Source of the DNA: Ptychodera flava
Lineage: Eukaryota > Hemichordata > Enteropneusta > Ptychoderidae
Length of the DNA: 64,000 nt
Assembly (NCBI RefSeq): GCF_041260155.1
Contig: NC_091944.1
Coordinates: forward strand, 12,155,272 to 12,219,271
Direction: 5' to 3'
How positions within the stretch are numbered: the first letter of the stretch is position 1; each line of letters opens with the position of its first letter. Below the pieces are notes generated by a model. That model was not told the origin of the DNA. It ran no database searches and worked only from the letters and a program-made list of their open reading frames with translations. A program made the position numbers and the translations under genes. Below are positions 30,156-60,943 of the stretch, piece after piece.

Positions 30156-30849
30156 TTATGTCGTTGGTCCAGCTTGTCGTATTTGAAGCTGTTCAAGTTT
30201 TTGGAATAGCAAATCCATGCGCTGATTTTGTTCTGTCTGCTGTCTCTGCATTATTTCGAACCGCTTTTCGATTACATCCTGTAATTGTTCATGGTCACTC
30301 TTCATCTGCTTTTCAACGTTGTCTAATCTCGCGCTCACTTCTTCTTCTTTCCTTTTTATTTCTTCGAGCGTACTCAGAATTTCAGGTGGAGCTGTTTTTT
30401 CTTGGTGTCCCTCATTTATCACATTTGTGCCGCTGAATACGTCCAGCTTACTTGATATTTGCTGTTGACAATCTTTTATGATATCAAGGGAATTTCTGAT
30501 ATCTGGATAACAGTTCTCAGCACCCGCATTTGCACGTAGGTGGTGTTCTAGCAGGTCTTTCATGTCATCAAGGGTAAAGTTCACCGCAGCTATTGGTCTG
30601 CCGTCGGTTGACTTAGTCTGACGTTGTACTTCAATATGTAAAGCCACTGAGTCTTCCTGTGAATTTTGCTCGATGATACCCTGTTGTTCCTGTGGCTGCA
30701 GTGACTGAAGTTGCCGATGTTGATTTTGCTGTCCAGTGCCCGCAGATTGCATAGTGTTCTGCCGCTGCAGTTCTTGTAGGTGTTGCTGCTGCTGCTGCTG
30801 AAGCAGCTTTTGTGGTTGTTTCTGCTGCTGAAGTAGCTGTTGTTGTTGC

Positions 30850-30882
<33 letters not shown>

Positions 30883-33573
30883 CGCTGTTGCTGTTGTGAA
30901 CTCTTTTGATCTTGTAGATGCTGCTGTTGTTGTTGACATTGATGCTGTTGTTGACTTTTATGCTGTTGTGAACTCTTTTGATCTTTTAGATGCTGCTGCT
31001 GCTGTTGCTGCTGCTGCTGTAGCGCCACTTGTTGCTTTGTATTAACCGGTGCTGTTTGAGAAGTGCATCGAAAATTTACTTATCACTACAAAATATAGGC
31101 AGGCATGATTTGCGGTATCGATAAGTTTAAACGTCAACTCGTCAGTATGGAAAATTTTCTTCAACTGTTTTCCTACATTATGCTCCATATCGGACCAAGG
31201 AATGATCTGCTTCTCAAACAATTTCTAATGAACAAAATCGCATTCAATCGACATTGCGTTCACCTAAAAATTTATCCAAAAAAAGAGCTTATAATAACTA
31301 TATACATGTAACTTACCTATGATACCCAGAGAACGCCGTTCAATATAATCTGCCAAACGATCGCTTAGGGTTTCTTGTTTCTCTGTAAAATTGATTGTAA
31401 AGCATGAACAATAAGCAAAATCATATTGTAGTATTTTGATATCAATGACACAAGTTTCGATTTAAATTTTTAACCGCCTCTTTAATATAATGGCAAAGCT
31501 TTTTATGTTTGCTCTGACATCAGCAAAGAAGTCTAAAAATTAAATAAAATGATCGAAAAAAATAATAATAAAATTTCACTTTTACCAGAAATATTGCAAG
31601 CGTAGATGACGACCATCCTTAAACGCCAGTTGTAGTCTTTCTGCGCCAACAAATTCCCTATTTGACCATCAGTCATTTCTCTGTGTTCCTCCTTCATTTG
31701 TCTGTGAAGAGACGTTTTCAAATGATCTCGAAGAACTTTATCTTGACAACTCGTGCTCATCATTGGCAGCACAAAATTGCATTTCACTGAAAGTATAAAG
31801 CCACCTTATTATGTTTAATGAAAAGTGTCTGGCTAGTAATAACAATCGAAAATTTAATACCCATTTGTACACCAATGTTAATGTATAGAAGGCTTAGTGG
31901 AAGAAATTTTGCTGAGTATGCAATTTGATTTTTAAGTACGAATACAGTGTGAAACAACATCATTAACCTTCGTATTTCACCAGTCTGAGAGTAGGGTTTT
32001 TTGAAGTGACTCAAATTTTATAATTTCTATAAGACATAACTGGACACTTACTTAAACATGATAAACAAGTGAAGCGACGCCGTAAGTTATCAATGATGGT
32101 AAAACCAAAAAATCTACTTACATTGTTCATTGACTATTTGTATAACATTTACACAAGTGATACATTGACAGAACCAAACCAAGCGGTTGCATTTTGATGA
32201 CCCAAAGACCCTTGATGACCAAGAATTCCTATTCGATGACGGAATGCGACCAAGCAGCTGATTCAAATGGCCAAAATTGTCGCTCACTTTGCAGAATTCG
32301 TTCTTTGACCAAAGTCCAGACTTGTCGTAAAAGGTAGTCAGTGCATTTTGCGCATTTACTTTTCCGTTGCTCGTGTTCGGATGATGCAAGGCATTGCGTT
32401 CTTCTATAAGGTGAGATTTGGTGTCAAACTCATCGATATGAAAAAGTAACTTGTATGATTCCAAGTGTTCCTTAAACTCTTCACACTGACTGTCATTGCC
32501 GAACACCACCATATTATTGACGTACAGCATTCTGGGTAGGTAGACAACCTCTTCAAAGTAGCACTTTATCGCAGACTTCTGGGTCTCATTCAACTGTTGC
32601 CACAGCGAAAAACATCTTCCTTTAGAAGCTAGGCAACACGCGTTCTTGTCCCTGTATGTCCAGATTTTGAGAAAGTAATCGGAAATCAGTTTTCCTTCTG
32701 CCAGAGCTTCTGATTTCTTGTCACCATATAGGAAAACGAGAAATGAACCTAGATGAAAATGGACAAATTACATCTGTTATCATTGAGGCAATTGAGATTT
32801 CAAGTTCCTTATTTATTTCTTACGTAATTTTGAGACCATTGTTCGTAAGAGTGTTTACTCGGGCAAATATAAGTATGTTATCTTCAAAACTATCTAGATA
32901 CAAATGTGTAATGGTAGTGCTGAAATGTTTCTAGTTCCAGTTCGTTGCAATACATGTACCTGAAATATAACGAAATGATGTAAAACTTAAAACTTGATCA
33001 AATCTTCATGTGTACCTGATCTAAATACGAGAGTTCCGAGATTTGCGAAATTGAATTCACTTGTTGGTCGCCTTTGAATCAAAATGCAGCGCTGACAGGA
33101 AGCCTGCCTTCATATGTGTATTTTCATTATGTTTGTTTTATAATTTATTCACAATTCTTATCACTCATTACATAAATCTCTTGCCAAATAAAAGATTCAG
33201 ATACTGATTTTGTAAAAGACTGTATCTTGCCCCTCTACAGGACTGCATGCAGGGTAATCATTTTAGAATTTTCTCAGAGTTACCTACCCCTTGGTTTTGA
33301 TATCTTGGTGGAGAGTTCTCTAAGATCATCCCAGTGATCAATAGATCTGTCCCGGTCAGTTGGTGTCAGGAGAACCCTTGTCTGTCTCGTATCTATGACA
33401 ACTACTGGTGTCACAGCACTGAAGGCTGAACTTCTATCACGAAAAGAACTTTTATTGTAGATATTAACATTACATCGCATGCCATCGAGGATGGTCGTCA
33501 GCTGACCTTTGATCTCTTCGCTGGCTTGTTTGAATGACTCGAGTTTGCTGTAAATGAGGACTTGTTGAGCCAT
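30156..33573 (-). CDS. Family X alpha/beta protein with glutamine-rich coiled-coil C-terminus, complete
   Basis: Five exons: 33,573-33,288, 32,748-32,122, 31,786-31,586, 31,382-31,317 and 31,051-30,156. All four introns are GT-AG and phase 1, and the total is 2,076 nt (691 residues plus stop). The ATG at 33,573 follows an in-frame TAA. Residues ~1-95 give VLIYSKLESFKQA, VVVIDTRQTRVLLTP and DHWDDL. Exon 2 gives LVFLYGDKKS, CFSLW and a second alpha/beta half starting NNMVVFGND. Exon 3 (KCNFVLPMM) matches exon 3 of the + strand relative at 6.5-9 kb. The last exon begins with ~120 residues dominated by glutamine (CAG/CAA), then a Gln-rich linker and a predicted coiled coil (IKRKEEEVSARLDNVEKQMK) ending GPTT. 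The Gln/coiled-coil tail suggests oligomerisation. Function is unknown. It is transcribed away from the UBL-GTPase gene at 34.7 kb. Confidence 0.8.
30780..31020 (-). repeat. CAG/CAA triplet-repeat tract inside coding exon
   Basis: Runs of CAG and CAA on the minus strand encode polyglutamine, interrupted by a repeated HLQDQKSSQQ/HLKDQKSSQQ segment. The interruptions show that the tract also grew by duplicating a ~30-codon block. The valine/alanine-rich frame on the + strand here is a shadow. Confidence 0.9.
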
Positions 33574-34663
33574 CTCGCCACATGGATGGATTTACAGGAT
33601 CTGTCGGTAATACACATATTACCTAAGGTTAAAAAAGGGAGGCACATCAATATCCCATACAGGCATTGGTTGTTGTTAGTTTCTTCCCCCGTCCCTTTCA
33701 TAAAGGGCGAGAAGGCTTTTTCTTTCTAAACCTTTTTTTTTTTACATTTAATACGATTATAGTATCTGTATCGCGACCTTCACACTAAATCTGGCTTACG
33801 CTGTAAACGAAATCAAAACCCTGGGACGACTTATGGTCTTCCTAGTTTCAGTGCAAGTTTTAAACGATATCACCTGTGATGGACAGTTCCATTGTCCATG
33901 TATATGTAAAATGGAAATTAAAACAAAAATCCCATTAGAAGAAGTTTCAGTGCAAGTTTTAAACGATATCACCTCTGATGGACAGTTCCATTGTCCATGT
34001 ATATGTAAAATGGAAATTAAAACAAGAAATCCCATTAGAAAAAGAATTACAGACTTTCGGGTGCAATGTTGTTATCTCTTATGTACGACAGACTTGCTCG
34101 CTTTTCTGGCGTCAGGGTTCGATGAACTTTACTGCCATTCCATGCCCAAAGACTACAGCAACCAGGCGAAGGCATCATCTTTGGATTCAATAACATTGTA
34201 CTGAACGAGAAACTCTGGCCATCCCAGCTTCACAAATCGAACGGCCAACTGTGCAGCTAAGACAGTTTCGTTCTTCTCTAAAACATTGGTCGATCCAAAA
34301 GTTCGCCGTTCGTCGAATTTCTTTCTAGCATACGAGGGTACGGGAAATAACGACCCGAGGGCCTCGCCAATGACCTGCGATTCTTGTTGCAATATCAACA
34401 CTGAACGGTTATGAAACCTTACCTTTCTGAAATGTGAATTCTTGGAAAGTTGTAGTTTCGTGATATGCAGCCATTTTGAAATTTCACCTCAAATACAAGC
34501 AGTTGACATTTGAAAAATTGAAGACGTGAAACGACAGTATTGGCTCAAGCTGGTATCATTGTTTGGACGCCCTCAATTCTGCATTCATATGCAAATCCGA
34601 GTACTGAACTCTGGTCGACAGCTTTCACTTCTTCAAGCGAAAGAAAAGCTTGCAACTTCGACT
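33574..34663. promoter_or_regulatory. Head-to-head intergenic region between the family X gene and UBL-GTPase gene A
   Basis: About 1.1 kb separates two divergent start codons, at 33,573 (-) and 34,664 (+), so a shared or bidirectional promoter is likely. A minus-strand acceptor-like TTTAACCTTAG near 33,625 suggests a 5' UTR intron of the (-) gene. The region holds a 99-bp tandem duplication and conserved open frames of doubtful meaning. It is duplicated almost intact at 42,785-43,811. Confidence 0.5.
33844..34041. repeat. 99-bp tandem duplication, copy A only
   Basis: Two adjacent units (33,844 and 33,943), each with AGTTTCAGTGCAAGTTTTAA and GGACAGTTCCATTGTCCATG. Copy B has a single unit (from ~43,060). 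The 99-bp length keeps the open frames on both strands in register (33 codons), so those frames are poor evidence of coding. Confidence 0.9.
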
Positions 34664-36859
34664 ATGGGGAACGGTAAGATTTCTATCCATGTCAGAAATT
34701 CTCGCGGCGGGAACGCAATGCCATTACAGTGCAACAAAGATGATACAATTAGTGCTCTGGCGGCAAATCTGCAAAAGAACGCCACATTGTTTGATATTCA
34801 TCCAGACGACATAAAGCTCAATACCCTGGAAATCTACCAAAACCTGCCGAATAACAAAAAGAAAAAAGTGGAGTTCTTTGAGAGAGTAACAACACTCAGC
34901 GACCATGGCTATCTCGTTGAATTTGATCATCACCCTCTTGAAAGTAAGTTTGAGCTGGCAAATACTTTTAAGTATTATTTTATGACAGGCAGAGAATAAC
35001 ACTGAAAAAGAACTGTTCAAATAGCTATGAAGTTGGAAATTGACACTTTTATCAATTAAGGTGACAGGTACTAATGTCAGATAGTGTCATGAATCACTAC
35101 TACTATGACAGAAAAAATCATCTGCAAAACTTTACACTGGTTTGCTGATTCCTCACATTTATAGCCATCATGATTTTGACCTATGACCTTTACCTGTGAC
35201 CCAGTTCATAAAAACGTACCAGTGATTATTGATTGATTGATTGATTGCTTTGTTTATTAATTTTATTCATGTATCTATTCTGTTTATTTATTCATATATC
35301 CATTTGTATTTTTTGTATTTATTCATTCGTTTGTTGAGTTATTTCCTGATTATTAAAGTTAAAAGAGATAAGAAGCTCACCAAGATCATGCTAAACAGCA
35401 AAAATAACCAATAAAAACAAAATAAAAAGTGACATTTTAACAGCACTCAAAACAATATTAAGGTGGTGGCCGTTTTGTCCAATCTTTGCCAATAAAAATG
35501 ACGACCACTGTCTCCCAGTATATATTTAGATCCTTCATACCTTTCAAAATGTATTTTTTAAGAATATCCTTATGTTCTTAATTGATCAGGTATAGGTGCA
35601 TTCATGCTTCCTAAACTTCAGAATTTCTCATAAATAGCTCATTTATGTTGTTAATCTACTTTTCAGTGCAAGAAATCAGAGTCAAATACGTCAATTCGAT
35701 CAACCCAATTAAAATCAGATGTGGCGTTGATGACTTCGTCTGCGATCTGTCAGACAAAATCCTGGAAAATCTAAACGATTTCCCCCTCTCAAGCGACGAC
35801 CGTGAACGTATAAGAGCCGAGGGTAGTGAAATACAACTATTTTTCCCTTCGTCGGATGGTGGTTTAGAACCTCTTGACCCCATGCATCAGGTTTCGAGGC
35901 TGCCAAAGAAGTATGTGATGTTCGATGTTAGGACACAGGAGATGAAGGACAAGGGAAATGGTAATTGGGTGTAGAATTGTTGAGTTTGCATAACATTGAC
36001 GAAAGTACACTATGCAAATAGTTAGCATTCGAGAGCACATTTCATTTTAATCCTAAAAACGCAAGCTGGTTAATTTACTGCTCGGCTATCCTCTTTTTAT
36101 CATATAGTTTTCTCAACCTGTATGGCGATTTGCTGTTTATTTTTTCTCAACGCATTTCAATATTATTTATAAAGGTTATATTTGCATGCTGTCCTTCTAT
36201 CATTGTGTTATCTATCTGTTACCTATCAAACGGGAATATTACAAAATGGTCACTTCCTGCCTTATACAATAAAGCCTTCAGAATATTGTACGATTTTAAA
36301 AAGCAAATAGACTTTTTCCAGAAGTTTTCATCTTGTCATACCTCACGGTTGGTGAATAAATAACATAGATTACATCTCAAAGATCATTTGCTAATGATAA
36401 ATGGCATTTATTACTCTATGTTAAATCATTCTGCCATGTTGTTTTTAACCGACAGCCATAAAATTGTATGTACGGCATCAGAATTCCAGATGCGCCGAGG
36501 TGATCGTTTGCTGGGAAAACGACACAGTACTAGATGTAATCAAGGATATAAAGAGTGACATCACACGGTTTGGATTGTCAATGGACGATGTGAAGGAGTT
36601 GGATGACCAAGATAAGGTCATGGTATTGGTCAAACCAGGACAGAAAACCGGTGACGTGGCAGTTGCTATGGAACCATATGATTCAGTAAGTTCTTTGAAA
36701 GACCAGGTGGTAGTATTTCGAATGGAAGATAAAGAAGTAAAACAAGTAACAATAGGTAAGTTCAATAGAATATGGAATGAACAGTTTTTCCTATATTTAT
36801 AAATGGATTCATAAATTCATCGTATTATCTGTTGCTTTAATTGCTAAAGGATCCATGAT

Positions 36860-36910
<51 letters not shown>

Positions 36911-38361
36911 TTTTGTAGACGAGATTGAAAAATTTTGTGTTGGTCAAACTATTGCTTTCTTTGGAGCATCCGGGCATGGGAAATCGTCAACAATCAACAC
37001 AATAGGAGAGGTAATATTAAACATTATTACTTTAAGAAAACCAAATAGGGTAAACCTGCCAGATAAAGTCAATCAAATGCTACTTAACTATGAGTGGATG
37101 TTTATTCTAGAAATGAGAGCCATAACGGTAACATTTGATGTTGATAAATATCACTTTAGAATTTCAATTTCAGGCCGATACAAAACTTCACCATGAGGAA
37201 TATAGTGACATAAAATAATACAAACAAAATAGTTGCGAACATTCCCCAGACATAATTATATGATTATCAAGATACACTCATGTAGGAAAGGATTTCACAC
37301 TTATCGATGTCGACCTAATGTGTGAACCACAGGTCATACCTGGTGTTGAAACACCACTAGCCGATATATGGAAGGGAACAGCCGCAGGCACAATTGTCAT
37401 TTCCTCACTTCCAGTCGAAGTGGGGATCCACACTTTTAATCTGCTTGATGTCCCTGGTAACGGTCTTCCTCAATACGAGTCACCAAGTGACGAGAAGAAG
37501 GCCCGTGACGTCATCCGATGGATACTGCAGGGGTCCTTTCCAAAAGACACCAAGCCTGACTTTTGGACATCAAAGAACATCCTAGGAGCATGGCTCACGT
37601 ACATGAAGAGTGAAAGCAGTGGACGAGTTGACATCGTAGTGATAGTCCATAATGCTAGTGCTTATTCTCCAGACAAGTTGAACAATCTGGTTGTGGCTGA
37701 AGCACGACAACAGAGAGGTAAGGGCAACACATGGGATGTTAACTCATGCAGTATCCATTTTTTCGACAATTTCCTTTGACCCCTTTTTTAAGATCGCACA
37801 TTAAGCATGTGCCGACTTTACCTAAGAGTACAAGCTGGCTGAATAAAATTGTCATATATTCGAAAAGCTACAAAGAAAACTTTACCTGAAATAATCACAC
37901 TATGTTAACTATTATTCACAACAGTATGATGAATTACTGTTAATGGTAACCACGGAAATCACGATGAAAATGACAAAATGACAAATCACATGCCATATTA
38001 CCTCCAAATAACCTATCGCTTACTCAAGCTAGTAATCCGCACACTTCTGATAAAATGTGAAATTGACCGTCAAATGATAAAAATTGTCTTCATTTTATTT
38101 CTATTGTTTTGTTTTACAGGAAATGGCATTCCTGTTATGGCTGTGATCACGCACGTTGATGAATTGAAAGACGACGCTGAACTCAAAGAGAAGGTCACTG
38201 AACTTTCAGACATCACCGGCATTGACGAATCATTCATTTTTCCTATTTCAAATCTATCAGGTAAAGGGTCTTACCTCAGGGGATCAGAAAGAGATAACTA
38301 TGTCTTGACTATGCTTAAACAAATGTTAGCAAGGTCTAAGAGATATAAATCACAAACATAA
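34664..38361 (+). CDS. Triple ubiquitin-like domain, IFI44-like GTPase, copy A
   Basis: Six exons: 34,664-34,943, 35,667-35,960, 36,456-36,755, 36,919-37,010, 37,333-37,717 and 38,120-38,361. They total 1,593 nt (530 residues plus stop) with all splice phases matching. Exons 1-3 are phase-1 modules of ~95-100 residues. Each opens with a short strand (KISIHVRN, EIRVKYVN, IKLYVRHQ) and has an acidic DD/ND turn before a helix, as in ubiquitin-like beta-grasp domains. Exon 4 carries the P-loop GASGHGKSSTINTIGE. Exon 5 has a switch-like GTAAGT and G3 DVPG. Exon 6 has THVDE (G4), SNLSG (possible G5) and a C-terminus LTMLKQMLARS like the IFI44 ALRQM segment. IFI44 is an interferon-induced GTPase-like protein of the vertebrate antiviral response. 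Three ubiquitin-like repeats ahead of the GTPase are unusual. The start was chosen because this ATG context is shared with copy B. A (TTTA)n run precedes exon 4. Antiviral function is inference. Confidence 0.85.
36858..36913. repeat. (TTTA)n microsatellite before GTPase exon 4, copy A
   Basis: About 14 TTTA units end a few bases before the TTTTGTAG acceptor of exon 4. They may act as its pyrimidine-rich tract. Copy B has the same repeat at 46,001-46,056 with one interrupted unit. Confidence 0.95.
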
Positions 38362-39370
38362 ATATTTTGGTACCATTGCTTATATTGGTGTATTTTGTCC
38401 ACAAACGTAAACATAATTACTTTCTCAAAGGGTTTTAGACCTATGTTTGACTAGCCTATATTCAGGTAAGCTATGTTGCAATATCAAAGACTCTTAAGAA
38501 GGAATGTCCCAACATTGACCACTTTTATATATACCTTTGTGACATTTTTTCTATACTGGGCTGTTTGTTTTCTTTCTGCTTTTATTTTGAAATTAATTCG
38601 TATATAAATTATCGTTTGTAGTTTATAAAGCAATAAATAATACCTGTACTTGTATCCTGCTCGAAAATTCATTTTATACTGCAAAATGTTAGTAAAAAAC
38701 ATATTAGTCAGATTTTTTTGCTGTTCTACTGATTGTAACCAACACACATTTTTAGCAAAGACTTGTTAAGCGTGTCTTCTTATGACAAATTTGTTGTGGA
38801 CGACAATAAAGTGGTACCAATTTTCGCTGTTTGAATAAGAGTATGACTGTCATTTCTCACGGATCGAGTCGACAATCAGCTGAACACATCAACTGTTAAC
38901 ATGTAAATGATTATTTAAAGCGATATGGGGTCGTCACAACTACAGTCAAAGGTCATATGGGAAAATACAAAGTAGATACTGCATCCAAGTTACGTCTCCC
39001 TAGGCGATTAATGAAAGTTAACATATGTCTGCCATGCATGTTGCAGCGTTTTGACGTGATGCTTCTAGATGTTTTTGTCGAATCCAAACCGACTCAGTTC
39101 CGAAGACTCCCCTCTGTGTCAATATGCTTTTGTAGAGACTGCAACAAGCATATTGACGATTACAGATTTTAGGCTGATGTGTAAAAGTGACCGATCGCAA
39201 AAACATTTCGTTTCTTTTAATATCAAGATAACACTGTTGTTTAAGTCTTAAATAATTATTTTGATAGTTGTTCCTTCGCACCTTTTAGTAAAACTCAAAA
39301 TATGATATGTTCTTTGCAAAGGGTCATAGGTCATCCAGGGATAACTTGTTCATTTCTGTCTGTTTCTTAA
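38362..39370. other. 3' flank of UBL-GTPase gene A
   Basis: Candidate polyadenylation signals AATAAA lie near 38,632 and 38,803. The rest is non-coding sequence shared almost base for base with 47,485-48,486. The segment with GTCATAGGTCATCCA near 39,324 is also found, diverged, at ~52,150. Confidence 0.6.
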
Positions 39371-40379
39371 AGGGGAAGTTCACCAAGGATGATTTTTACA
39401 TATGTGGTAGCTCTGTGGTCATTTACCCCGGAAAAGCTATTTTCACCATTTATAGCTCGCAAGATTTTTTACAAAAACGATAAAATAGTACAGGAAGTTG
39501 CCCATGAAATTGAATCATGAGAAAAAGCTCCAAGCTTGGAGCTTGCATAATGTGATATGGAAGGGACCATCTCCGGACGGGTATGGCCCCACACATAGTC
39601 CACTCACAGTAACACGGTATATAGACAGCAACACAAAATCTGACAGTGGACAGTTTACAACCATTTTCAGTAATAGAGCGCAGCCACTGCAGTGAACTGC
39701 AATAAAACTGCTCACATTAATTATTTCAGCTGTAGCCAGCTGGCAAAGTCGACAACATTGTATGTCCCATGCAGACAGTTTGTCTAGGGAAGTTGAAATA
39801 AAAAAGATTTGTACATGGACCAGTGCATGGTAATGTTACATTGTATCTTAATCTTGAACACAGGATGCCAATCGTAAACTCTCATTTACAACTCGAGCCT
39901 CAGACAGAGCTAGTTTTGCCTTTGTACAGGCAGACTTTTGGTCTTTATCAAGTAGCCTTGTTCAACACCAAAGTGGACACGGCTACAGCTGTAACTAATA
40001 GTGTAAGCAGTTTTATTGCAATTCACTGCAGTGGCTTCGCGCTCTATTAATGAAAATGGTTGTATTATAAGTGAATCATTGTTTATGCAAGGATACTCAG
40101 GATAAACAAAAGTTATGTAAATACGCACAGCCTGGTTTAAGTATGGGTGAGTGGACAATGCCATACCCATGGGAAAATGGTCCCTTTCATAACACATTAT
40201 GCAAGTTCCAAGCTTGGCGCTTTTTCCCATGATTCAAATTACATGGGCAACTTCCTGTACTATTTCTATAGGTTTTTGTAAAAAATCTTGAGAGTTATAA
40301 ATGGCAAAAATAGCTTTTCCGGGATAAGTGACCACAAAGCTAGCATATATGTAAAAATCATCCTTGGTGAACTTCCCCT
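39371..40379. mobile_element. TTAA fold-back DNA element inserted in copy A
   Basis: The ends are AGGGGAAGTTCACCAAGGAT and its complement ending GGTGAACTTCCCCT. The left flank is TTAA (39,367-39,370); the right flank is TCAA (40,380-40,383), a one-base drift from TTAA. Copy B keeps the empty site TTAACATGG at 48,483. Arms of ~370 bp are inverted copies around a ~240-bp centre. There is no transposase. TTAA targeting points to piggyBac or Kolobok. The insertion postdates the A/B duplication. Confidence 0.9.
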
Positions 40380-40383
40380 TCAA

Positions 40384-42784
40384 CATGGACTTTGTCGTTG
40401 ACATAACCTGTCCGAGAGAAGTGACATATACACTACTTTGAAAATGATGTTCAGCATACTTGTATTATAAATTACGATGGAGAACATAAAATCGCAAAGT
40501 TCTTCAAAATAATATAATGCCGAGTTCAGTACCTGGTCCATTGTGCACTGCTGAGTGACTTTGTGTACAGCCGTGGCGGTTCATTGGATATTGCAGGCTA
40601 ACTGGTAACCACCGGGAGATCACTGTAATATGATATCCTTCAAAAAATATTTGTCGCAGATAAGTTGGCCTTTTTTCAAGAAATTGTTAACACGAACATG
40701 CTGTGATTTGATTGTATTTTGAATGTATGATATCGTTAAGTACACTTGCGTGTCAAACTGACGAGGCAAAATTAATCCATACTGTATGTGCAGCTTGTGT
40801 GTTCTTTTACCATGACAACAAGCCATGGAGAGGTGATATTAGTCTCACATGACTTCACACAAATGCATCTTGCCCACAGGTACACATTTGCCCTCGGTCT
40901 ACACTTTTGAGAGGGGCTTCCGCTCAATATGTCATATAGGTCAACTAGCATGTGGCCGCCTTGAATAGTCTGAGTAGTGTGAAGGTGCAATGTTCGTTAC
41001 TTGTTAGGCCACACAAGTCTCAATCGTCGCCTCTTTGCAATTTTGTTTAATACTTGACATTATTTATGTACATAAAGTTGCACAACAGGGACTGCATGCT
41101 ATGAAGTATCAAACATGGAAGCAAAGGCACTATAGTGATGACTTACATAAATGTGAATTTTTGAACTTCGTATTATGAAAATATCCGATCGCTGCTTTAC
41201 TTGTTCATTTACATACTTATTTTATTTGTTTGTTTGCGTGTTTTATTGGTCGGTTGGTTGGCTGGTTATTTCGCCCTTCAAAGTCAACCCAGGCTCATAT
41301 GGAAGTTTGTCTTTGTCAGCAAACGAACACGTGTCTCACAGTATACACTATGTCGAGATAGAGTTAACGTGTATACGTAATCCAAATCATTGATAGCTGA
41401 AACGAAAGGCGACTCTACTCAGACAAATAATGCCTAATGCATAGAATTTGAGGTCAGTTCGACGAAAAACTTGTTTTTCTGCCAACACTTGAAACTCTTA
41501 TGACCTGTAACCTTTAGCCATTCAAAGCAAATTTTTGATACGTACATCAGTCAGCCCATTGCCTGTCCTGAATTGCCCGAGTGCTGTGCAGGTGCACATG
41601 TCGTTGTGAATGGGAGCTTATAAGAGAAAATCGACGCCATATTGTTTAGCATTTTTCACTCTTTCAACGTAATTGTAAAACTGACTGCACTGTACTGCGC
41701 TGTAAATCGACGCCATTTTGCTCACATGTAGATTACTTTACTTATAAGGGCGGGGATTAAGTTGAGCTGTTTTGACTGTCTTCACTACTGAGGTGATTGG
41801 GTGCCATATTGTGAGTTGGAATCTCATCTATAATCTACTGAATTTCCATTCCCTAACGTATTGCACAACATGGACTGCATAATATGTATCGTTAAATATT
41901 GTACATATAGCGCCCCTACAGTGTTCAACGTCGAGGGGGAGGGGGCATGCCAATGTTCACACACACGTTTATATATTTATTGATTTATTTAAAATACGAA
42001 ATTAGGGCTCATTCGGATCTAAAGATTGTAATAATTACTTATTTTTACTCATTCATTACAAGTGAGGAAACGATAGCTAAATATATCGAATCGTTTCAAT
42101 TTGCTAACACAGAAAAAGTTCACTTGCACACCAAAATACATGACTTTTTTCTTTGCGTCTTTTGGTCAAAGATTAGGTTAGGTATTTGGGCATGTAAGTA
42201 CACTCCAGGATGTCTAAATGATAATTTAAACCATGCGGGGAATGAATGGTATCATCAGTGAATGGTTATACTATGCTTACAAAAAAGGAGAAAAATGCAA
42301 CAAAAACACGCAATGTTCGTTTCCATAGTAACGATGCACAGCAAAGGAAACATAGCAAATTTTTAAACTCGGATCCGGTCGACTGAGCGCAGTTTAGGGA
42401 CTTAACTCACACAAAGGGTCATCTTTGACAACACTTGACCCAGAAATAGGTCAGTCATCTGAGTTAGATCACCGAAGGTGGGTAACATATACTACCTTAG
42501 GGGAAATGCCTGTGACCTCTTGACCACTTTGCGTTGACTAGAGGGACTGAGTTAACCAGGATAATCTTCTGAATACATTAACAGGTACGTTATCATTTTA
42601 ATAATATGACTCGTCCCAAAATAGTTGCATATCTATAAGGTGATGTGGTGAAACTTAAGACGATTATGGCTTACATTTGCTAAACGTCAACTTCGCAGGA
42701 CAAGTGAGACGGGTGTTTATTTCTCAGATACTTTTCATGCAAAAGAAGTTTGCGGCTGAAATTAACCGTTGATTACATTGTACC
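40384..42784. repeat. 3' flank of copy A with early copies of the ~300-bp module
   Basis: No gene is seen. The segment from ~41,396 (CTGAAACGAAAGGCGACTC) through AATCGACGCCATATTGTTTA at ~41,632 is one copy of the module that fills 53.4-64 kb. Shorter relatives occur at ~41,025-41,115 and ~41,785-41,910. The short frames at 41,175-41,393 and 41,947-42,261 are not conserved in copy B. Confidence 0.6.
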
Positions 42785-42921
42785 TTGAGCCATCTCGCCA
42801 CATGGATGGATTTACAGGATCTGTCGGTGATACACATATTACCTATGGTTAAAAAAGGGAGGCACATCAATATCCCATATAGGCATTGATTGTTGTTAGT
42901 TTCTGCCCCCGTCCCTTTCAT
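42785..42921 (-). pseudogene. Orphan 5' end of the family X gene in copy B
   Basis: The start codon, ATGGCTCAAG, and the 5' leader of the 33.6-kb minus-strand gene are repeated here. After three codons the sequence runs into the end of copy A (GTACAATG). The duplication breakpoint therefore fell inside exon 1 and left a promoter with no gene behind it. The 65-codon open frame across it is not the gene's frame. Confidence 0.85.
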
Positions 42922-43811
42922 AAAGGGCGAGAAGGCTTTTTCTTTCTAAACCTTTTTTACATTCAATACGATTATAGTATCTGTATCGCGACCTTCACAC
43001 TAAATCTGGCTTACGCTGCAAACGAAATCAAAACCCTTGGATGACTAATGGCCTTCCTAGTTTCAGTGCAAGTTTTAAACGATATCACCTGTAATGGACA
43101 GTTCCATTGTCCTTATATATGTAGAATGGAAATTAAAACACGAAATCCCATTAGAAAAAGAATTACAGACTTTCGGGTGCAATGTTGTTATCTCTTATGT
43201 ACGACAGACTTGCTCGCTTTTCTGGCGTCAGGGTTCGATGAACTTTACTGCTATTCCATGCCCAAAGACTACAGCAACCAGGCGAAGGCATCGTCTTTGG
43301 ATTCAATAACATTGTACTGAACGAGAAACTCTGGCCACCCCAGCTTCACAAATCGAACGGCCATGTACGGGGAAATTTAACTGTGCAGCTAAGACACTTT
43401 CGTTCTTCTCCAAAAGATTGGTCGATCCAAAGTTCACCATTCGTCGAATTTCTTTCTAGCATACGAGGGTACGGAAAATAACGACGCGAGGGCCTCGTCA
43501 ATGACCTGCGATTCTTGTTGCAATATTAACACTGAATGAGTATGAAACCTTACCTTTCTGAAATGTGAATTCTTGGAAAGTTGCAGTTTCGTGACTGAGC
43601 GATTCAGATCACCAGTATGCAGCCATTTTGAAATTTTACCTCAAATACAAGCAGTTGACATTTGAAAAATTGAAGACGTGAAACGACAGCATTGGCTCAA
43701 GCTGGTATCATTGTTTGGACGCCCTCAATTCTGTATTCATATGCAAATCCAAGTACTTAACTCTGGTCGACAGCTATCACTTGTTCAAGCGAAAAGGTTG
43801 CAACTGCAACT

Positions 43812-46017
43812 ATGGCAAGCGGTAAGATTACTATCCATGTCAGAAATTCTCGCGGCGGGAACGCACTACCATTACAGTGCAACGAAGATGATACAATTAG
43901 TGCTCTGGCGGCAAATCTGCAAAAGAACGCCACATTGTTTGATATTCATCCAGACGACATAAAGCTCAATACCCTGGAAATCTACCAAAACCTGCCGAAT
44001 AACAAGAAGAAAAAGGTGGAGTTCTTTGAGGGAGTAACAACACTCAGCGACCATGGCTATCTCGTTGAATTTGATCATCACCCTCTTGAAAGTAAGTTTG
44101 AGCTGGCAAATACTTTTAAGTATTATTTTATGACAGGCAGAGAATAACACTGAAAAAGAATGGTTCAAATAGCGATGAAGGTGGAAATTGACACCTTTAT
44201 CAATTAAGATGACAGGTACTAATGTCAGATAGTAAAATCAATCACTACTACTATGACAGAAAAAATCGTCTGCAAAACTTTACATTGGTTTGCTGATTCC
44301 TCACATTTAAAGCCATCTTGATTTTGACCTATGACCTTTACCTGTGACCCAGTTCATAAAAACGTACCAGTGATTATTGATTGATTGATTGCTTTGTTTA
44401 TTTATTCATGTATCTATTCTGTTTATTTATTCATATATTCATTTGTATTTTTTGCATTTATTCATTCGTTTATTGAGTTATTTCCTTATTATTAAAGTTA
44501 AAAGGGATAAGAAGCTCACTAAGATCATGCTAAACAGCAAAAATATACAATAAAAACAAAATAAAAAGCGACATTTAAACAGCACTCAAAACAATATTAA
44601 GGTGGTTGCCGTTTTGTCCAATCTTTGCCAATAAAAATGACGACCACTGTCTCCCAGTATATATTTAGATCCTTCATACCTTTCAAAATGTATTTTTTTA
44701 AGAATATCCTTATGTTCTTAATTGATCAGGTATAGGTGCATTCATGCTTCCTAAACTTCAGAATTTCTCATAAATAGCTCATTTATGTTGTTAATCTACG
44801 TTTCAGTGCAAGAAATCAGAGTCAAATACGTCAATTCGATCAACCCAATTAAAATCAGATGTGGCGTTGATGACTTCGTCTGCGATCTGTCGGATAAAAT
44901 CCTGGAAAATCTAAACGATTTCCCCCTCTCAAGCGACGACCGTGAACGTATAAGAGCCGAGGGTAGTGAAATACAACTATTTTTCCCTTCGTCGGATGGT
45001 GGTTTAGAACCTCTTGACCCCATGCATCAGGTTTCGAGGCTGCCAAAGAAGTATGTGATGTTCGATGTTAGGACACAGGAGATGAAGGACAAGGGAAATG
45101 GTAATTGGGTGTAGAATTGTTGAGTTTGCATAACATTGACGAAAGTACACTATGCAAATAGTTAGCATTCGGGAGCACATTTCATTTTAATCCTAAAAAC
45201 GCAAGCTGGTTAATTTACTGCTCGGCTATCCTCCTTTTTATCATATAGTTTTCTCAACCTGTATGGCGATTTGCTGTTTATTTTTTCTCAACGCATTTCA
45301 ATATTATTTATAAAGGTTATATTTGCATGCTGTCCTTCTATCATTGTGTTATCTATCTGTTACCTATCAAACGGGAATATTAAAACAATGGTCACTTCCT
45401 GCCTTATACAATAAAGCCTTCAGAATATTGTACGATTTTAAAAAGCAAATAGACTTTTTCCAGAAGTTTTCATCTTGTCATACCTCACGGTTGGTAAACA
45501 AATAAATTGGATTACATCTCAAAGATCATTTGTTAATGATAAATGGCATGTATAACTCTATGTTAAATCATTCTACCATGTTTTTTTTTAACCGACAGCC
45601 ATAAAATTGTATGTACGGCATCAGAATTCCAGATGCGCCGAGGTGATCGTTTGCTGGGAAAACGACACAGTACTAGATGTAATCAAGGATATAAAGAGTG
45701 ACATCACACGGTTTGGATTGTCAATGGACGATGTGAGGGAATTGGATGACCAAGATAAGGTTATGGTATTGGTCAAACCAGGACAGAAAACCGGTGACGT
45801 GGCAGTTGCTATGGAACCATATGATTCAGTCAGTTCTTTGAAAGACCAGGTGGTAGTATTTCGAATGGAAGATAAAGAAGTAAAACAAGTAACAATAGGT
45901 AAGTTCAATAGAATGTGGAATGACAATTTTTCCTAGAATTATAATTGGATTCATAAATTCATCGTTTTATCTGTTGCTTTTATTGCTAAAGGATCCATGA
46001 TTTATTTATTTATTGAT

Positions 46018-46056
<39 letters not shown>

Positions 46057-47484
46057 TAGACGAGATTGAAAAATTCTGTGTTGGTCAAACCATTGCTTTC
46101 TTTGGAGCACCCGGGCATGGGAAATCGTCAACAATCAACACAATAGGAGAGGTAATATTAAACGTTACTACTTTAAGAAAACAAATAGGGTAAACTTGCC
46201 AGATAAAATCAATCAAATGCTACATAACTATGAGTGGATATTTATTCTAGAAATAGCAGCCATAACGGTAACATTTGATGTTGATAAATATCACTTTAGA
46301 ATTTCGATTTAAGGCCGATACAAAACTTCAACATGAGGAATATAGTGACATAAAAATAGTACAAACAAAATAGTTACAAACATTCCCCTGACATAATTAT
46401 ATGATTATCAAGATGTCATCATGTAGAAAGGGATTTCACACTTATCGATGTCGATCTAATGTGTGATCCACAGGTGATACCTGGTGTTGAAACACCACTA
46501 GCTGATATATGGAAGGGAACAGCCGCAGGCACAATTGTCATTTCCTCACTTCCAGTCGAAGTAGGGACCCACACTTTTAATCTGCTTGATGTCCCTGGCA
46601 ACGGTCTTCCTCAATACGAGTCACCGAGTGACGAGAAGAAGGCCCGTGACGTCATCCGATGGATACTGCAGGGGTCCTTTCCAAAAGACACCAAGCCTGA
46701 CTTTTGGACATCAAAGAACATCCTAGGAGCATGGCTCAAGTACATGAAAAGTGAAAGCAGTGGACGAGTTGACATCGTAGTGATAGTCCATAATGCTAGT
46801 GCTTATTCTCCAGACAAGTTGAACAATCTGGTTGTGGCTGAAGCACGACAACAGAGAGGTAAGGGCAACACATGGGATGTTAACTCATGCAGTATCCATT
46901 TTTCGACAATTTCTTTTGACCCCTTTTTTAAGATTGCACATTAAGCATGTGCCGACTGTTGCCTAAGAGTACAAGCTGGCTTGAATAAATTTTTCATATA
47001 CTCGAAAAGCTACAAAGAAAACTTTTGCCTGAAATAATCACAGTATGTTAAATATTATGTACAAAAGTATGATGAATTACTGTTAGTGGTAACCACGAAA
47101 AATGACAAATCACGATGGCCATATTACCTCCAAATGATCGCTTACTCAAGCTGTTAATCCGCACACTTCTGATAAAATGTGAAATTGACCGTCAAATGAT
47201 AAAAATTGTCTTCAATTTTATATCTATCTTTTGGTTTTACAGGAAATGGCATTCCTGTTATGGCTGTGATCACGCACGTTGATGAATTGAAAGACGACGC
47301 TGAACTCAAAGAGAAGGTCACTGAACTTTCAGACATCACCGGCATTGACGAATCATTCATTTTTCCTATTTCAAATCTATCAGGTAAAGGGTCTTACCTC
47401 AGGGGATCAGAAAGAGATAACTATGTCTTGACTATGCTTAAACAAATGTTAGCAAGGTCTAAGAGATATAAATCACAAACATAA
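43812..47484 (+). CDS. Triple ubiquitin-like domain, IFI44-like GTPase, copy B
   Basis: Exons 43,812-44,091, 44,807-45,100, 45,599-45,898, 46,060-46,151, 46,474-46,858 and 47,243-47,484 have the same lengths and phases as copy A (1,593 nt, 530 residues plus stop). The domain order is identical. The P-loop reads GAPGHGKSS instead of GASGHGKSS. By eye about ten residues differ from copy A. Six are in exon 1 (start MASGKITIHV against MGNGKISIHV); exons 2 and 6 encode identical protein. The ATG is confirmed as the start because upstream sequence is in a different frame from copy A. The upstream region is a duplicate of the head-to-head promoter but without an intact divergent partner. Both copies look intact, so this is a recent functional pair rather than a gene and a relic. 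Confidence 0.85.
46001..46056. repeat. (TTTA)n microsatellite before GTPase exon 4, copy B
   Basis: TTTA units with one TTGA interruption, in the same intron position as in copy A. Confidence 0.95.
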
Positions 47485-48829
47485 CTATTTTGGTACCATT
47501 GCTTATATTGGTGTATTTTGTCCACAAACGTAAACATAATTACTTTCTCAGAGGGTTTTAGACTTCTGTTTGCCTAGCCTATTTCAGGTAAGCTATGTTG
47601 CAATATCAAAGACTCTTCAGAATGGATGTCCCAACATTGACCACTTTTATATAAACCTTTGTGACATGTTTTCTATACTGGGCTGTTTGTTTTCTTTCTG
47701 CTTTTATTTTGAAATTAATTCGTATATAAATTATCGTTTGTAGTTTACAAAGCAATAAATAATACCTGTACTTGTAAATTCATTTTATACTGCAAAATGT
47801 TAGTAAAAAACATATTAGTCAGATTTTTTTGCTGTTCTACTGATTGTAACCAACACACATTTTTAGCAAAGACTTGTTAAGCGTGTCTTCTTATGACAAA
47901 TTTGTTGTGGACGACAATAAAGTGGTACCAATTTTCGCTGTTTGAATAAGAGTATGACTGTCATTTCTCACGGATCGAGTCGACAATCAGCTGAACACAT
48001 CAACTGTTAACATGTAAATGATTATTTAAAGCGATAGGGGTCGTCACAACTGCAGTCAAAGGTCATATGGGAAAATACAAAGTAAATACTGCATCCAAGT
48101 TACGTAGGCGATTAATGAAATTTAACACATGTCTACCATGATGTACATGTTGCAGCGTTTTGACGTGATGCTTCTACATGCTGTTGTCGAATCCAAACCG
48201 ACTCAGTTCCGAAGACTCCCCTTTGTGTCAATATGCTTTTGTAGAGACTGCAACAAGCATATTGACGATGGGAAAATACAGATTTTAGGCTGATGTGTAA
48301 AAGTGACCGATCGCAAAAACATTTCATTTCTTTTAATATAAAGATAACACTGTTGTTTAAATCTTAACTAATTATTTTGATAGTTGTTCCTTCGCACCTT
48401 TTAGTAAAACTCAAAATATGATATGTTCTTTGCAAAGGGTCATAGGTCATCCAGGGATAACTTGTTCATTTCTGTCTGTTTCTTAACATGGACTTTGTCG
48501 TTGACATAACCTGTCGTAGAGAAGTGACATATACACTACTTTGAAAATGATGTTCGGAATACTAGTATTATAAATTACGATGGAGAACATAAAATCGCAA
48601 ATTTCTTCAAAATAATATAATGCCGAGTTCAGTACCAAGTCCATTGTGCACTGCTGAGTGACTTTGTGTACAGCCGTGGCGATTCATTGGATATTGCAGG
48701 CTAACTGGTACCACCGGGAGATCACTGTAATATGACATCCTTCAAAAAATATTTGTCGCAGATAAGCCGGCCTTTTTTCAAGAAATTGTTAACACGAACA
48801 TGCTGTGATTTGATTGTAAATTGAATGTA

Positions 48830-49153
48830 CAGGGCTTACAGGCAAGACTTGCCACTTCGATGCCTGGTATGCATGTTTTTTTACACACACTAAACGTTTT
48901 CATATCATTAACAGGAAGGAACCTAATGACTGGTCTGGTCGTAAAGACATTAATTTGCACCCAAGACTGGTGATAGTAATCTGTCTCAAGGCCTACATGT
49001 CAGATATATTTCGGTGTCGGTTTTCTGTTGTTTATCCTGTACAAACAATCCAGTCATTAGGTTCCTTCCTGTTAATGATATGAAAACGTTTAGTGTGTGT
49101 AAAAAAACATGCATACCAGGCATCGAAATGGCAAGTCTTGCCTGTAAGCCCTG
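48830..49153. mobile_element. TA-flanked MITE inserted in copy B
   Basis: The inverted ends start CAGGGCTTACAGGCAAGACT and stay nearly identical for about 105 bp. They flank a ~115-bp centre and are bordered by TA on each side (48,828-48,829 and 49,154-49,155). Copy A has the empty site GAATGTATGATATCG at ~40,721 with a single TA. TA duplication fits a Tc1/mariner-type element. Arm identity shows it is young. Confidence 0.9.
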
Positions 49154-49832
49154 TATGTTATCGTTAAGTACGCTTGCGTGTCGAACTGACCAGGCAAAAT
49201 TAATCCATACTGTATGTGCAGCTAGTGTGTTCTTTTACCATGACAACAAGCCATGGAGAGGTGATATTAGTCTCACATGACTTCACACAAATGCATCTTG
49301 CCTCACAGGTACACATTTGCCCTCGGTCTACACTTTTGAGAGGGGCTTCCGCTCAATATGTCACATAGGTCAACTAGCATATGGCCGCCTTGAATAGTCT
49401 GAGTAGTGTGAAGGTGCAGTGTTCGTTACTTGTTAGGCTTCACAAGTCTCAATCGTCGCCATTTTGCCATTTTGTTTAATACTTGACATTCTTTAATATA
49501 TGTACATGAAGTTGCACAACAGGGACTGCATGCTATGAAGTATCAAACATGGAAGCAAAGGCACTATAGTGATGACTTACATAAATGTGAATTTTTGAAC
49601 TTCGTATAATGAAAATGTCCGATCGCTGCTTTACTTATTCATTTACATACTTATTAATTTGGGTTTATTTTTTGCGTGTTTTATTGGTCGGTTGGTTGGC
49701 TGATTCTTTCGCTCTTCAAAATCAACCCAGCCTCATATGGAAGTTTGTCTTTGTCAGCAAACGAACACGTGTCTCACAGTATACACTATGTCGAGATAGA
49801 GTTAACGTGTATACGTAATCCAAATCATTGAT

Positions 49833-50170
49833 AGCTGAAACGAAAGGCGACTCTACTCAGACAAATAATGCCTAATGCATAGAATTTGAGGTCAGTTCGA
49901 CGAAAAACTTGTTTTTCTGCCAACACTTGAAACTCTTATGACCTGTAACCTTTAGCCATTCAAAGCAAATTTTTGATACGTACATCAGTCAGCCCCGGCT
50001 GTCCTGAATTGCCCGAGTGTTGTGCAGGTGCACATGTCGTTGTTAACGGGAGCTTATAAGAGTAAATGGACGCCATATTGTTTAGCATTTTTCACTCTTT
50101 CAACGTAATTGTAAAACTGACTGCACTGTACTGCGCTGTAAATCTACGCCATTTTGCTCACATGTAGATT
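49833..50170. repeat. ~300-bp module, copy B instance
   Basis: It runs from CTGAAACGAAAGGCGACTC to ATGGACGCCATATTGTTTAG and the following TTTTTCACTC. It is the counterpart of 41,396-41,720 and a relative of the array units from 53.4 kb onward. Confidence 0.7.
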
Positions 50171-51189
50171 ACTTACTTATAAGCCCGGGGATTAAGTTGA
50201 GCTGTTTTGACTGTCTTCACTACTGAGGTGACTGGGTGCCATATTGTGAGTTGGAATCTCATCTATAATCTACTGAATTTCCATTCCCTAACGTATTGCA
50301 CAACATGGACTACATGATATGTATCGTTAAATATTGTATATATGGTGTTCAACGTCGTGTGGGGAAGGGACATGCCCATGTTCATACACACGTTTATATA
50401 TTTATTGATTTATTTAAAATACGAAATTAGGGCTCATTCGGATCTAAAGATTTTAATAATTACTTATTTTTACTCATAATTCATTACAAGTGAGGAAACG
50501 ATAGCTAAATATATCGAATCGTTTCAATTTGCTGACACAGAAAAAGTTCACTTGCACACCTAAGTACATGACTTTTTTTCTTTGCGTCTCTTGGTCATAG
50601 ATTAGGTTAGGTATTTTGGTATGTAAGTACACTCCAGGATGTCTAAATGATAATTTAAACCATGTGGGGAATAAATGGTATCATCAGTGAATGGTTATAC
50701 TATGCTTACAAAAAAAGGAGAAAATTGCAACATAAACACGCTATGTTCGTTTCCATAGTAACGATGCGAAGCAAAGGAAACATAGCAAATTTTTAAACTC
50801 GGATCCGGTCGATTGAACGCAGTTTAGGGGGTTAACTCACACGAAGGGTCATCTTTGACAACACTTGACCCAGAAAGGGTCAGTCGTCTGAGTTAGATCA
50901 CCGAAGGGAAAATGCCTCTGAAAGGTTGACCACTTTGCGTTGACTAGAGGGACTGAGTTAACCAGGATAATCTTCTGAATACATTAACAGGTACGTTATC
51001 ATTTTAATACTATGACTCGTCCCAAAATAGTTGCATATCTATAAGGCGATGTGGTGAAACTTAAGACGATTATGGCTTACGTTTGCTAATCGTCAACTTT
51101 GCAGGACAAGTGAGACGGGTGCTTATTTCTCAGATACTTTTCATGCAAAAGAAGTGTGCGGTTGAAATTACACCTTGATTACATTGTAC

Positions 51190-52075
51190 ATTGGGACATC
51201 GACTGCCCAGCAGGACGCATATTTGGATCTATCATTTTAAATTCTCGGATGGAAAAGTAGTGGGTTGGATCATTGATCATGTGTGATATTTACCACTCTT
51301 TAATTAATTGTCATATAATCACTATCCACGCCTTTCATTTCAAGGGAATTTCAAGTATCACACTGTATAAAAATTGGTTCTAATGACGGTTTTACTTTCG
51401 CTTGTATTCAAATTCAGTCTATTCTAAAGCAGGCTATTCGCAAACGTCGTCTGTTGCACTGTACTTTCAATATTCGTATGCCATGAAAATCTGCATATTT
51501 AATTACAGAAACATATTTTTGTATATTTATGACTGGCAGAGATGACTTTGAAAATTTTCGGCGAACAAACGAACATCTACTGCATTTTTAAAACCTTCTT
51601 TCCAGTTCACGTTGTACTTATAACTTCACGATCGGTTTACTTTCACTTTCCACTTTCTCACGTCATACAGTGACAACTTTGACACAAGTTAAATTTCTAT
51701 GCAAAACATAATTGCTCCTGTACGTCCTTGGAAGAGCATTCCCTATTCAAAGCGTAAGAATATTCCAAAGACTGTAATTGCCATGTTTTCGTAGCAAAAG
51801 CGTAGCACTGTATGATAAATGTCTTTCTGATGAAAATACAATTGATAAAAGTATGTTGCGATAATTTTATGACTGTCATCAATATTATGCTCATGTTGGC
51901 TGACCATACTAATTAATCTCATGTATATGATGAATTAAGTTTCGATATACCCCGGCAGGGACTGCTACAAATAAGAAAAACGGTTGATTATAAGCCAGAT
52001 TATAAAAGTGGCCGCGTGAAGCAACATGATTGCATTTTCCTTCTCACATTTACTAAATTATTAAACAATAATATT
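51190..52075. other. Unique spacer after copy B; no gene recognised
   Basis: It is unrelated to either copy and to the array. No splice-supported exon or element was found. Confidence 0.4.
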
Positions 52076-54000: not shown

Positions 54001-54364
54001 CAGACTGCACACACCTTATTTCATGATGATTTTATATATAAAGTACAAATCCTGTAACAAGCACTACTATACCTGCTAATCCTTTGGAACGCAATCGATT
54101 TTGAACCTTATGGACAATAAAATTAAGGAATTTCAAATAAAGCTTATAATATATATTTTATATAATGTTAAGCAGTAAGTTTTTTTGTAAAGTCAAGGCT
54201 TATGTAACATTTCTTTATCAACTAGTATTTGGTATTTGGTTCTTGAAAGTTCTCAAAACGTTGAATATTTTTTTCAGAGAGTCTTCGTCAATAAACTCAA
54301 AAATGTAAGGTATGATCCCAGAATACACAGCGTGGAGGTGCGACGTGGAATCTTTTTATGGTGA

Positions 54365-59460: not shown

Positions 59461-60909
59461 CTTCTGTGCCGACTGACAAATATCAGTTGATTTTCGGCAT
59501 ATCGTTATTTCAATAGTTCAGTTAAATTATTCTTATTTTATGGCATTGTTCAAATATGTTAAGCATTTTTTTATCTAGTGAATTTTGATATGCACTATTT
59601 CTTTGACACAGTTTTTGAACATATTATGTCGTATTGATATAAATGTTTTTTCCATATGTTTTGTGAATGAATGTGGGACCATGAGGGCGCAAATAGCGAT
59701 TCTCCTTTCATCGGCATAAGGGTCTGTCTTCTCGGGTCGTCTCGTCTCGGGCCTGGTTTTCCTGTAAGCCTCAAATTCACGACTGACTGAAACGAAAGTA
59801 AAGTATGCTCCGACAAATAATGGCGACTTCGTACAATTAGACATTAGTTCGAGGAAATGTTTGTCAACCGTCGCCGATTGAAACTCCAAATGACCTTTAA
59901 CTGTTAGCTACTACACATAAATGTCTCGTAACCTTTAATCAGACAATGTAAATGTCTTGAATTAGGGTGAACCTATGAAAGCCTGTCTTGACTTGTTCGA
60001 GTATTTGACAGGGGAGGCGGCCGTCGTGTAAAGGGGCCCGACAAGCTTAGGATTAACTCGACACCAGATTTTTTTTCTTTTTCTGTTTAATTACATAACA
60101 TAAACAACACAGTATGTATTGTTAAACAGTGCTCCTCTTGCGTAACAATGTAACCTGATACAAATGTCTTTGGCTTTTGTAATATTGCATTTTGCTTAGT
60201 GTTCATTCAATACCCAGTGTATGTATGAATTCAATAATATTTAGCAAATTATTCTTAAAATATCATAATTAAAATATATATGGCCGTGTTTGAGGGTTAA
60301 CTCTTTGTCAATAACGGACATTTCGGCATATGCATCATAGAGAGTTGTCGTGCGTACTAATCCAAAGTCGAGAATTGCTAAAACGAAAGTAAAGTCGAGA
60401 CACGTACTTAGTAGAATTGCTGCTCAGTACGAGGGAATGTTTGTTTTCTTTCATCACGTGAAACTCTCATGATCTGTAGCGTACACTTACCTAATGTAAA
60501 CATCCTGTAAGCATTAATCATCCGATAGAACTGTTTGGTATATAGGTCAATCAGACTGTGGCGCTCGTGCTTGTCTGAGTAGTTCCAAGGCACAGTGGTT
60601 GTTGTGCATGAAGGCCTTATAAGATTAAATCGACGCCATTTTGTTTGATATTTTTCGCGAGTTTCAATGTGACTACAGAAAAAAGTTATAAACGTCTCAA
60701 TATGTACTGTTAAACGTTGCATCTATCACCCAGCAGTGCGAACTGGTAAAACTTTTAGCATATTACAGTAAAGGTTTCCGGTGAATGCTTGTTTTCCTTT
60801 TTATTCAATAAAACATTTAGGGTTTCGGTTCTTAAAGATGTTTTAAGTCGTCCTTGGCTTTTATTGGAGATTGTCTTTGTCCATGAACAGACTATGTCAT
60901 TTTCTCAGC

Positions 60910-60910
60910 A

Positions 60911-60943
<33 letters not shown>
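60910..60943. repeat. (TTA)n microsatellite
   Basis: About 11 units, present in repeat unit 1 and absent from the matching place in unit 2 (~62,852). Confidence 0.95.

What the first reader, a model, noticed from the sequence alone, without database searches (positions are those of the whole stretch)
34664..38361. Three ubiquitin-like domains joined to an IFI44-like GTPase
Seen: six exons with matching phases give 530 residues. Three successive ~95-residue modules share a beta-grasp-like opening strand, acidic turn and helix, and are followed by G1 (GASGHGKSS), G3 (DVPG), G4 (THVDE) and an IFI44-like C-terminus. Known: vertebrate IFI44L pairs this GTPase with a TLDc domain; I know of no described member with three ubiquitin-like repeats. 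Inference: the repeats may replace TLDc as partner-binding or conjugation-mimic modules in an inducible defence GTPase.
Basis: partly seen in the sequence, partly recalled or inferred. Interest (0 to 1): 0.8.

Follow-up and report, generated by a model that had tools for sequence, protein, structure and literature searches.

The report
Triple-module IFI44-like GTPase gene pair
An animal gene, present as two near-identical tandem copies, joins three copies of a small, possibly ubiquitin-like module to a GTPase that resembles the antiviral protein IFI44, in place of that protein's usual front domain.

Summary
Six exons at 34664-38361 have canonical splice sites, matching phases and encode 530 residues. 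A tandem copy not mentioned in the finding lies at 43812-47484 with splice sites and frame intact; dN/dS between the copies is 0.17, so this is a real coding gene. The three ~95-residue modules are homologous: profiles built without one module recover it from 1579 window ORFs at E 6e-7, 1e-8 and 1-2e-3. The GTPase is TRAFAC-type and on balance most like IFI44 (whole-domain alignment, THVD, long post-G3 insert), but Era competes and BLASTP and phmmer see the relation poorly. No TLDc is detected; recalled human IFI44 shows one in the same scan. No module ends in diglycine, so conjugation like ubiquitin is unlikely. Best reading: an IFI44-like GTPase with a three-module adaptor array instead of TLDc; a new architecture of a known kind, with function inferred.

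The parts
34664..34943 (+). Copy A exon 1: start codon (A at -3, G at +4) and module 1 (residues 1-93)
   Evidence: upstream in-frame stop at 34511
35667..35960 (+). Copy A exon 2: module 2 (residues 94-191), symmetric phase 1-1 exon
36456..36755 (+). Copy A exon 3: module 3 (residues 192-291), symmetric phase 1-1 exon
36919..37010 (+). Copy A exon 4: P-loop G1 (GASGHGKSS)
   Evidence: PF03193 E 1e-5 and PF01926 E 0.006 on the whole protein, both below gathering score
37333..37717 (+). Copy A exon 5: switch region, G3 DVPG, long insert
   Evidence: the acceptor CCACAG is kept in copy B
38120..38361 (+). Copy A exon 6: G4 THVDE, IFI44-like C-terminus, stop
38632..38637 (+). Copy A candidate polyadenylation signal AATAAA, 270 nt after the stop; matched in copy B at 47754
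43812..44091 (+). Copy B exon 1, module 1
44807..45100 (+). Copy B exon 2, module 2
45599..45898 (+). Copy B exon 3, module 3
46060..46151 (+). Copy B exon 4, P-loop GAPGHGKSS (S309P against copy A)
46474..46858 (+). Copy B exon 5
47243..47484 (+). Copy B exon 6 and stop
   Evidence: end corrected by one base in 14
33565..42794 (+). Tandem duplication unit 1 (adjoins unit 2)
   Evidence: self-BLASTN
42785..51200 (+). Tandem duplication unit 2; the four co-linear aligned blocks are 93-95% identical to unit 1
   Evidence: self-BLASTN

Best explanation
An animal GTPase of the IFI44-like type in which the usual N-terminal TLDc domain is replaced by three tandem copies of a ~95-residue, probably beta-grasp (ubiquitin-like) module, one per exon, probably made by duplication of symmetric phase 1-1 exons. 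Proposed working: the GTPase half is a nucleotide switch. The module array is a fixed, non-conjugated binding platform that docks partners or self-associates, and switching exposes or hides it, probably in an antiviral or stress response. Shown: gene structure, homology of the modules, G1/G3/G4 motifs, selection on protein sequence, no diglycine ends, no detectable TLDc. Inferred: the beta-grasp fold, partner binding, the switch, and the defence role.
For: Six exons in phase. An intact tandem copy with dN/dS 0.17. Leave-one-out module profiles recover the held-out module at E 6e-7 (M2), 1e-8 (M3) and 0.9-2.1e-3 (M1), next best window ORF E 0.8-2.7; pairwise z 5.1, 8.0 and 10.4. In-register sub-threshold ubiquitin matches over its first 34-45 positions: PF00240 E 0.12 with each whole protein, module profile against PDB ubiquitin variant R4 E 0.26 and 0.41, ranks 3 and 5 of 9, M1 against a recalled-ubiquitin HMM with 9 of 2549 reported shuffles equal or better. 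IFI44 (recalled): SW z 9.3-10, 0 of 1000 shuffles, hhalign over 208 columns at 29% identity, against z 3 for Irga6 (hhalign P-loop only) and 0.8 for Ras; segment from beta5 to the end z 4.6 against Era 2.6. G3-to-beta5 spacing 63, against 57 in IFI44 and 28 in Era.
Against: No significant ubiquitin-family hit for any module; module 1 submitted alone did not list PF00240 at E up to 10; M2 gives no signal and M3's best match to the ubiquitin HMM is out of register; of 900 shuffles one outscored every module and five outscored the best M1 ORF. IFI44 is not exclusive: Era scores z 7.3 with the domain, and past the P-loop it scores z 7.0-7.8 against IFI44's 5.9-6.3; in the insert IFI44 is not significant (526 of 10000 shuffles) and Era's counterpart is no worse (159 of 10000; one search likewise null). 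BLASTP found no IFI44 match (E 15), phmmer gave 8.6 bits, less than the 15.3 bits of an RsgA chain with the same domain, and tblastn of IFI44 on the window missed the gene. The IFI44 comparison rests on one recalled human sequence. Nothing shows expression, partners, cell location or defence.
Confidence: 0.55

Rival explanations
1. The modules are a lineage-specific alpha/beta repeat unrelated to ubiquitin (or another class such as PB1, CIDE-N or RA), used for oligomerisation of the GTPase.
For: No Pfam family reaches its cut-off; M2 has no ubiquitin signal; M3's is out of register. The module profile's two best PDB hits are Sr35/CNL9 chains (plant NLR, recalled), not ubiquitin, also not significant. 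Profile comparison with recalled ubiquitins gave probability 1.6%. A crude Chou-Fasman average puts a helix where ubiquitin's fourth strand would lie.
Against: In-register hits from three searches are to ubiquitin's first 34-45 positions. The same crude average opens with strand, strand, helix and closes with a strand.
Confidence: 0.3
2. The GTPase is a divergent TRAFAC (Era/RsgA/septin/GIMAP-like) protein, not specifically IFI44-like.
For: Era z 7.3, with 0 of 1000 shuffles as high, and higher z than IFI44 past the P-loop (7.0 against 6.3; last 120 residues 7.8 against 5.9). Top Pfam hits are RsgA_GTPase and MMR_HSR1, both below gathering score. BLASTP E 15 against IFI44. RsgA chain 15.3 bits against IFI44 8.6.
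Against: Higher z with IFI44 over the whole domain (9.8 against 7.3) and from beta5 to the end (4.6 against 2.6); THVD in both; insert length shared. Oyster IFI44L is itself described as TLDc plus MMR_HSR1 (PMC11682996 passage).
Confidence: 0.3
3. The two copies are not a tandem duplication but two haplotypes of one locus left side by side by the assembler.
For: The units adjoin (33565-42794 and 42785-51200) and differ by about 5%, which is within the range of heterozygosity of some marine invertebrates (recalled).
Against: The copies differ by indels and in their flanks, and a search with the neighbour gene's product found no match beside unit 2; read depth was not available.
Confidence: 0.3

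Closest known systems
IFI44 / IFI44L (vertebrates; oyster CgIFI44L-1)
   Same: GTPase half: G1 GxxGxGKSS, THVD at G4, long insert after G3, co-linear C-terminus
   Different: Known members carry N-terminal TLDc (for recalled human IFI44; PMC5614904 and PMC11682996 passages). Here three homologous modules and no detected TLDc
Ubiquitin-like (beta-grasp) modules such as the tandem Ubls of ISG15 (recalled)
   Same: Tandem ~90-100-residue modules; in-register weak match to the first 34-45 positions of ubiquitin
   Different: No significant hit; no C-terminal GG; fused in front of a GTPase
Era/RsgA-type TRAFAC GTPases
   Same: P-loop and G4/G5 region; Era z 7.3; RsgA_GTPase best Pfam hit
   Different: NKxD (recalled Era) in place of THVD; G3-to-beta5 spacing 28 against 63

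Membership tests
IFI44/IFI44L | GTPase with GxxGxGKSS, THVD-type G4, long post-G3 insert | tested here: met
   one recalled human reference only, and the insert agrees in length, not significantly in sequence
IFI44/IFI44L | Significant whole-domain similarity, better than to other GTPases | tested here: inconclusive
   SW z 9.3-10, but BLASTP E 15, phmmer 8.6 bits, and Era higher past the P-loop
IFI44/IFI44L | N-terminal TLDc domain | tested here: not met
   No PF07534 listed at E up to 10 for either copy; recalled IFI44 control E 1.5e-8. So it is not filed as a canonical IFI44
IFI44/IFI44L | Induced by virus or interferon | not testable with these tools
   Only motif counts, at chance level
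Ubiquitin-like modules | Beta-grasp fold | not testable with these tools
   Structure prediction switched off
Ubiquitin-like modules | Significant profile match | tested here: inconclusive
   PF00240 12.6 bits against cut-off 25.4 with the whole protein, not listed for module 1 alone; PDB ubiquitin variant E 0.26
Conjugated ubiquitin-like modifiers | C-terminal diglycine | tested here: not met
   Module ends PLE, KGN, VTI; GG only at 15 and 158
IRG (interferon-inducible GTPase) | Similarity beyond the P-loop to Irga6 (recalled) | tested here: not met
   z -0.6, 744 of 1000 shuffles equal or higher after the P-loop
GIMAP/AIG1 | PF04548 match | tested here: not met
   E 0.28, 19 residues only

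The most novel reading that the evidence does not exclude
An invertebrate IFI44-like GTPase in which a triplicated beta-grasp module, spread by duplication of symmetric exons, has replaced TLDc as the docking unit. It would be a linear, uncleavable Ubl array coupled to a GTP switch, with module 1 diverging faster than the rest between the tandem copies, as expected of a contact surface under changing pressure.
Probability: 0.35. Interest if true: 0.65.

Novelty: new variant of a known kind. Interest (0 to 1): 0.45.

Why it matters
How IFI44 proteins restrict viruses is not settled, and in one study restriction of RSV did not depend on the predicted GTP-binding region (PMC7459546 passage), which may point to the N-terminal half. 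A natural family member with a wholly different N-terminal half would let that half's role be tested by comparison and domain swap.

Tried and rejected
Relatives were sought in viral contigs and prokaryote species contigs: none found, so no deeper alignment could be built. No genome is held for the window and the species was not identified. The PDB hit 8vd6 (E 1.6e-4) was rejected: one stretch of 31-44 residues matching each unit of a repeat protein. A recalled-ubiquitin HMM ranked both M3 ORFs and the copy B M1 ORF first, second and third among 507 window ORFs, but one of 900 shuffles beat all three, five beat the M1 ORF, and M3's match was out of register, so I do not count M3 as support. 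hhalign of the modules against recalled ubiquitins: probability 1.6%. An earlier acceptor at 37286 for exon 5 would need phase 1 and does not fit exon 4; 37333 fits and is kept in copy B (read by eye). The IFI44 insert as a separate marker: not significant. Interferon-response sites: 6 found, 5.5 expected. Codon-score scan: its training set included these exons, so it is not evidence for them.

Full report
Gene structure. The start codon has A at -3 and G at +4, with an in-frame stop upstream. An AATAAA lies 270 nt after the stop codon.

A second copy. A search of the window with the protein found a tandem copy, 43812-47484, which the finding does not mention. The duplicated units adjoin (33565-42794 and 42785-51200). 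All splice sites and the frame are intact in copy B. Gaps aside, exons are 1565 of 1592 bases identical and introns 1977 of 2069 (sums of the rows; the copy B exon 6 boundary there was one base short, corrected). dS is 0.049 and dN 0.008, ratio 0.17, p 2e-5 with rounded counts. This is evidence for a protein-coding gene that does not depend on any family match. Of ten amino-acid differences six fall in module 1; its non-synonymous rate exceeds the rest, p 9e-4 with rounded counts. Whether the copies are a duplication or two haplotypes cannot be told here.

Three modules. Local alignments between modules give z 5.1 (M1-M2, 1 of 2000 shuffles), 8.0 (M1-M3, 0 of 2000) and 10.4 (M2-M3, 0 of 2000). 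Profiles built without one module found it among 1579 window ORFs at E 6e-7 (M2), 1e-8 (M3) and 0.9-2.1e-3 (M1); the next ORF was at E 0.8-2.7. The alignment used had been made with all modules, a small bias. M2 and M3 are each one phase 1-1 exon, the form that can be duplicated without breaking a frame.

Fold of the modules. No family reached its cut-off. PF00240 (ubiquitin) matched residues 8-50 at E 0.12 in each whole protein, below its gathering score, but module 1 alone did not list it at E up to 10. The module profile matched a PDB ubiquitin variant at E 0.26 and 0.41, ranks 3 and 5 of 9 hits; the best two were Sr35/CNL9 chains at 0.14 and 0.22. M1 matched a recalled-ubiquitin HMM in the same register (9 of 2549 reported shuffles as good); M2 did not; M3 matched out of register. 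Profile comparison gave 1.6%. A crude secondary-structure average opens strand, strand, helix and ends in a strand, as beta-grasp would, but has a helix where the fourth strand should be. I judge the beta-grasp reading at about 65%. Structure prediction, the test that would decide, was off.

GTPase. The spliced domain aligns end to end with recalled human IFI44 (208 columns, 29% identity by hhalign; SW z 9.3-10). Irga6 matches in the P-loop only; Ras and G-alpha do not match. Era reaches z 7.3 over the domain against IFI44's 9.8, and past the P-loop it is ahead (7.0 against 6.3; last 120 residues 7.8 against 5.9), while from beta5 to the end IFI44 is ahead (4.6 against 2.6). So much of the signal is general TRAFAC similarity. 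For IFI44 speak THVD in place of NKxD and the 63-residue spacing after G3 (57 in IFI44, 28 in Era), with RDxIxxILxG in the same place; but the insert is not significant in sequence (526 of 10000 shuffles; Era's counterpart 159 of 10000; null also). BLASTP, phmmer and tblastn did not find the relation significant, and phmmer scored an RsgA chain higher (15.3 bits). The recalled IFI44 was checked by its TLDc match (E 1.5e-8).

Function. There is no detected TLDc and no diglycine end. A fixed binding array on a GTP switch is the most economical reading; it is inference. Support from literature is indirect: RSV restriction by IFI44/IFI44L did not depend on the predicted GTP-binding region (PMC7459546, passages); an oyster IFI44 gene rises with poly(I:C), less so when an interferon-like protein is knocked down (PMC8218723, passages); an amphioxus IFI44-annotated gene falls after poly(I:C), log2 -9.66 (PMC5752451, passages).

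Literature. IFI44 with 'ubiquitin-like domain' and 'invertebrate': 0 papers. IFI44 with 'ubiquitin-like domain': 11 papers, 10 listed, none of whose titles or abstract openings describes such a fusion (listing only). The listings, several of them capped, showed no title or abstract opening with such an architecture, and one search found 0 papers. I read passages of seven papers and none in full, and the library lacks most subscription journals.

Surroundings. A divergent neighbour gene on the minus strand appears to begin near 33573, about 1.1 kb from the start of copy A (read from the frame), and has a paralogue at 6472-7948. The ORFs searched from the two gave no Pfam family at E up to 1 and, for the joined paralogue, none at E up to 10 and no significant solved structure (best E 0.07).

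Noticed in passing
6472-7948 (+) and 33591-32117 (-): Two paralogous genes of an unknown family (42% and 39% identity over two stretches), with a shared VLI[FY]SKLESF opening and VVVID[AT]RQTR motif; no Pfam hit and no significant PDB hit for the first. One is head to head with the GTPase gene.
   Followed up: partly
30159-31079 (-): Open frame of 307 residues with a long glutamine-rich stretch followed by a probable coiled coil (judged by eye); may be a further exon of the minus-strand neighbour gene.
   Followed up: no
34664-34943 against 43812-44091: Module 1 holds six of the ten amino-acid differences between the tandem copies (p 9e-4 for excess non-synonymous change).
   Followed up: partly
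53500-64000: Many direct repeats (units up to about 1 kb, about 75-99% identical).
   Followed up: no
33844-34044: Two head-to-tail copies of a 99-base unit in the region between the neighbour gene and copy A.
   Followed up: no
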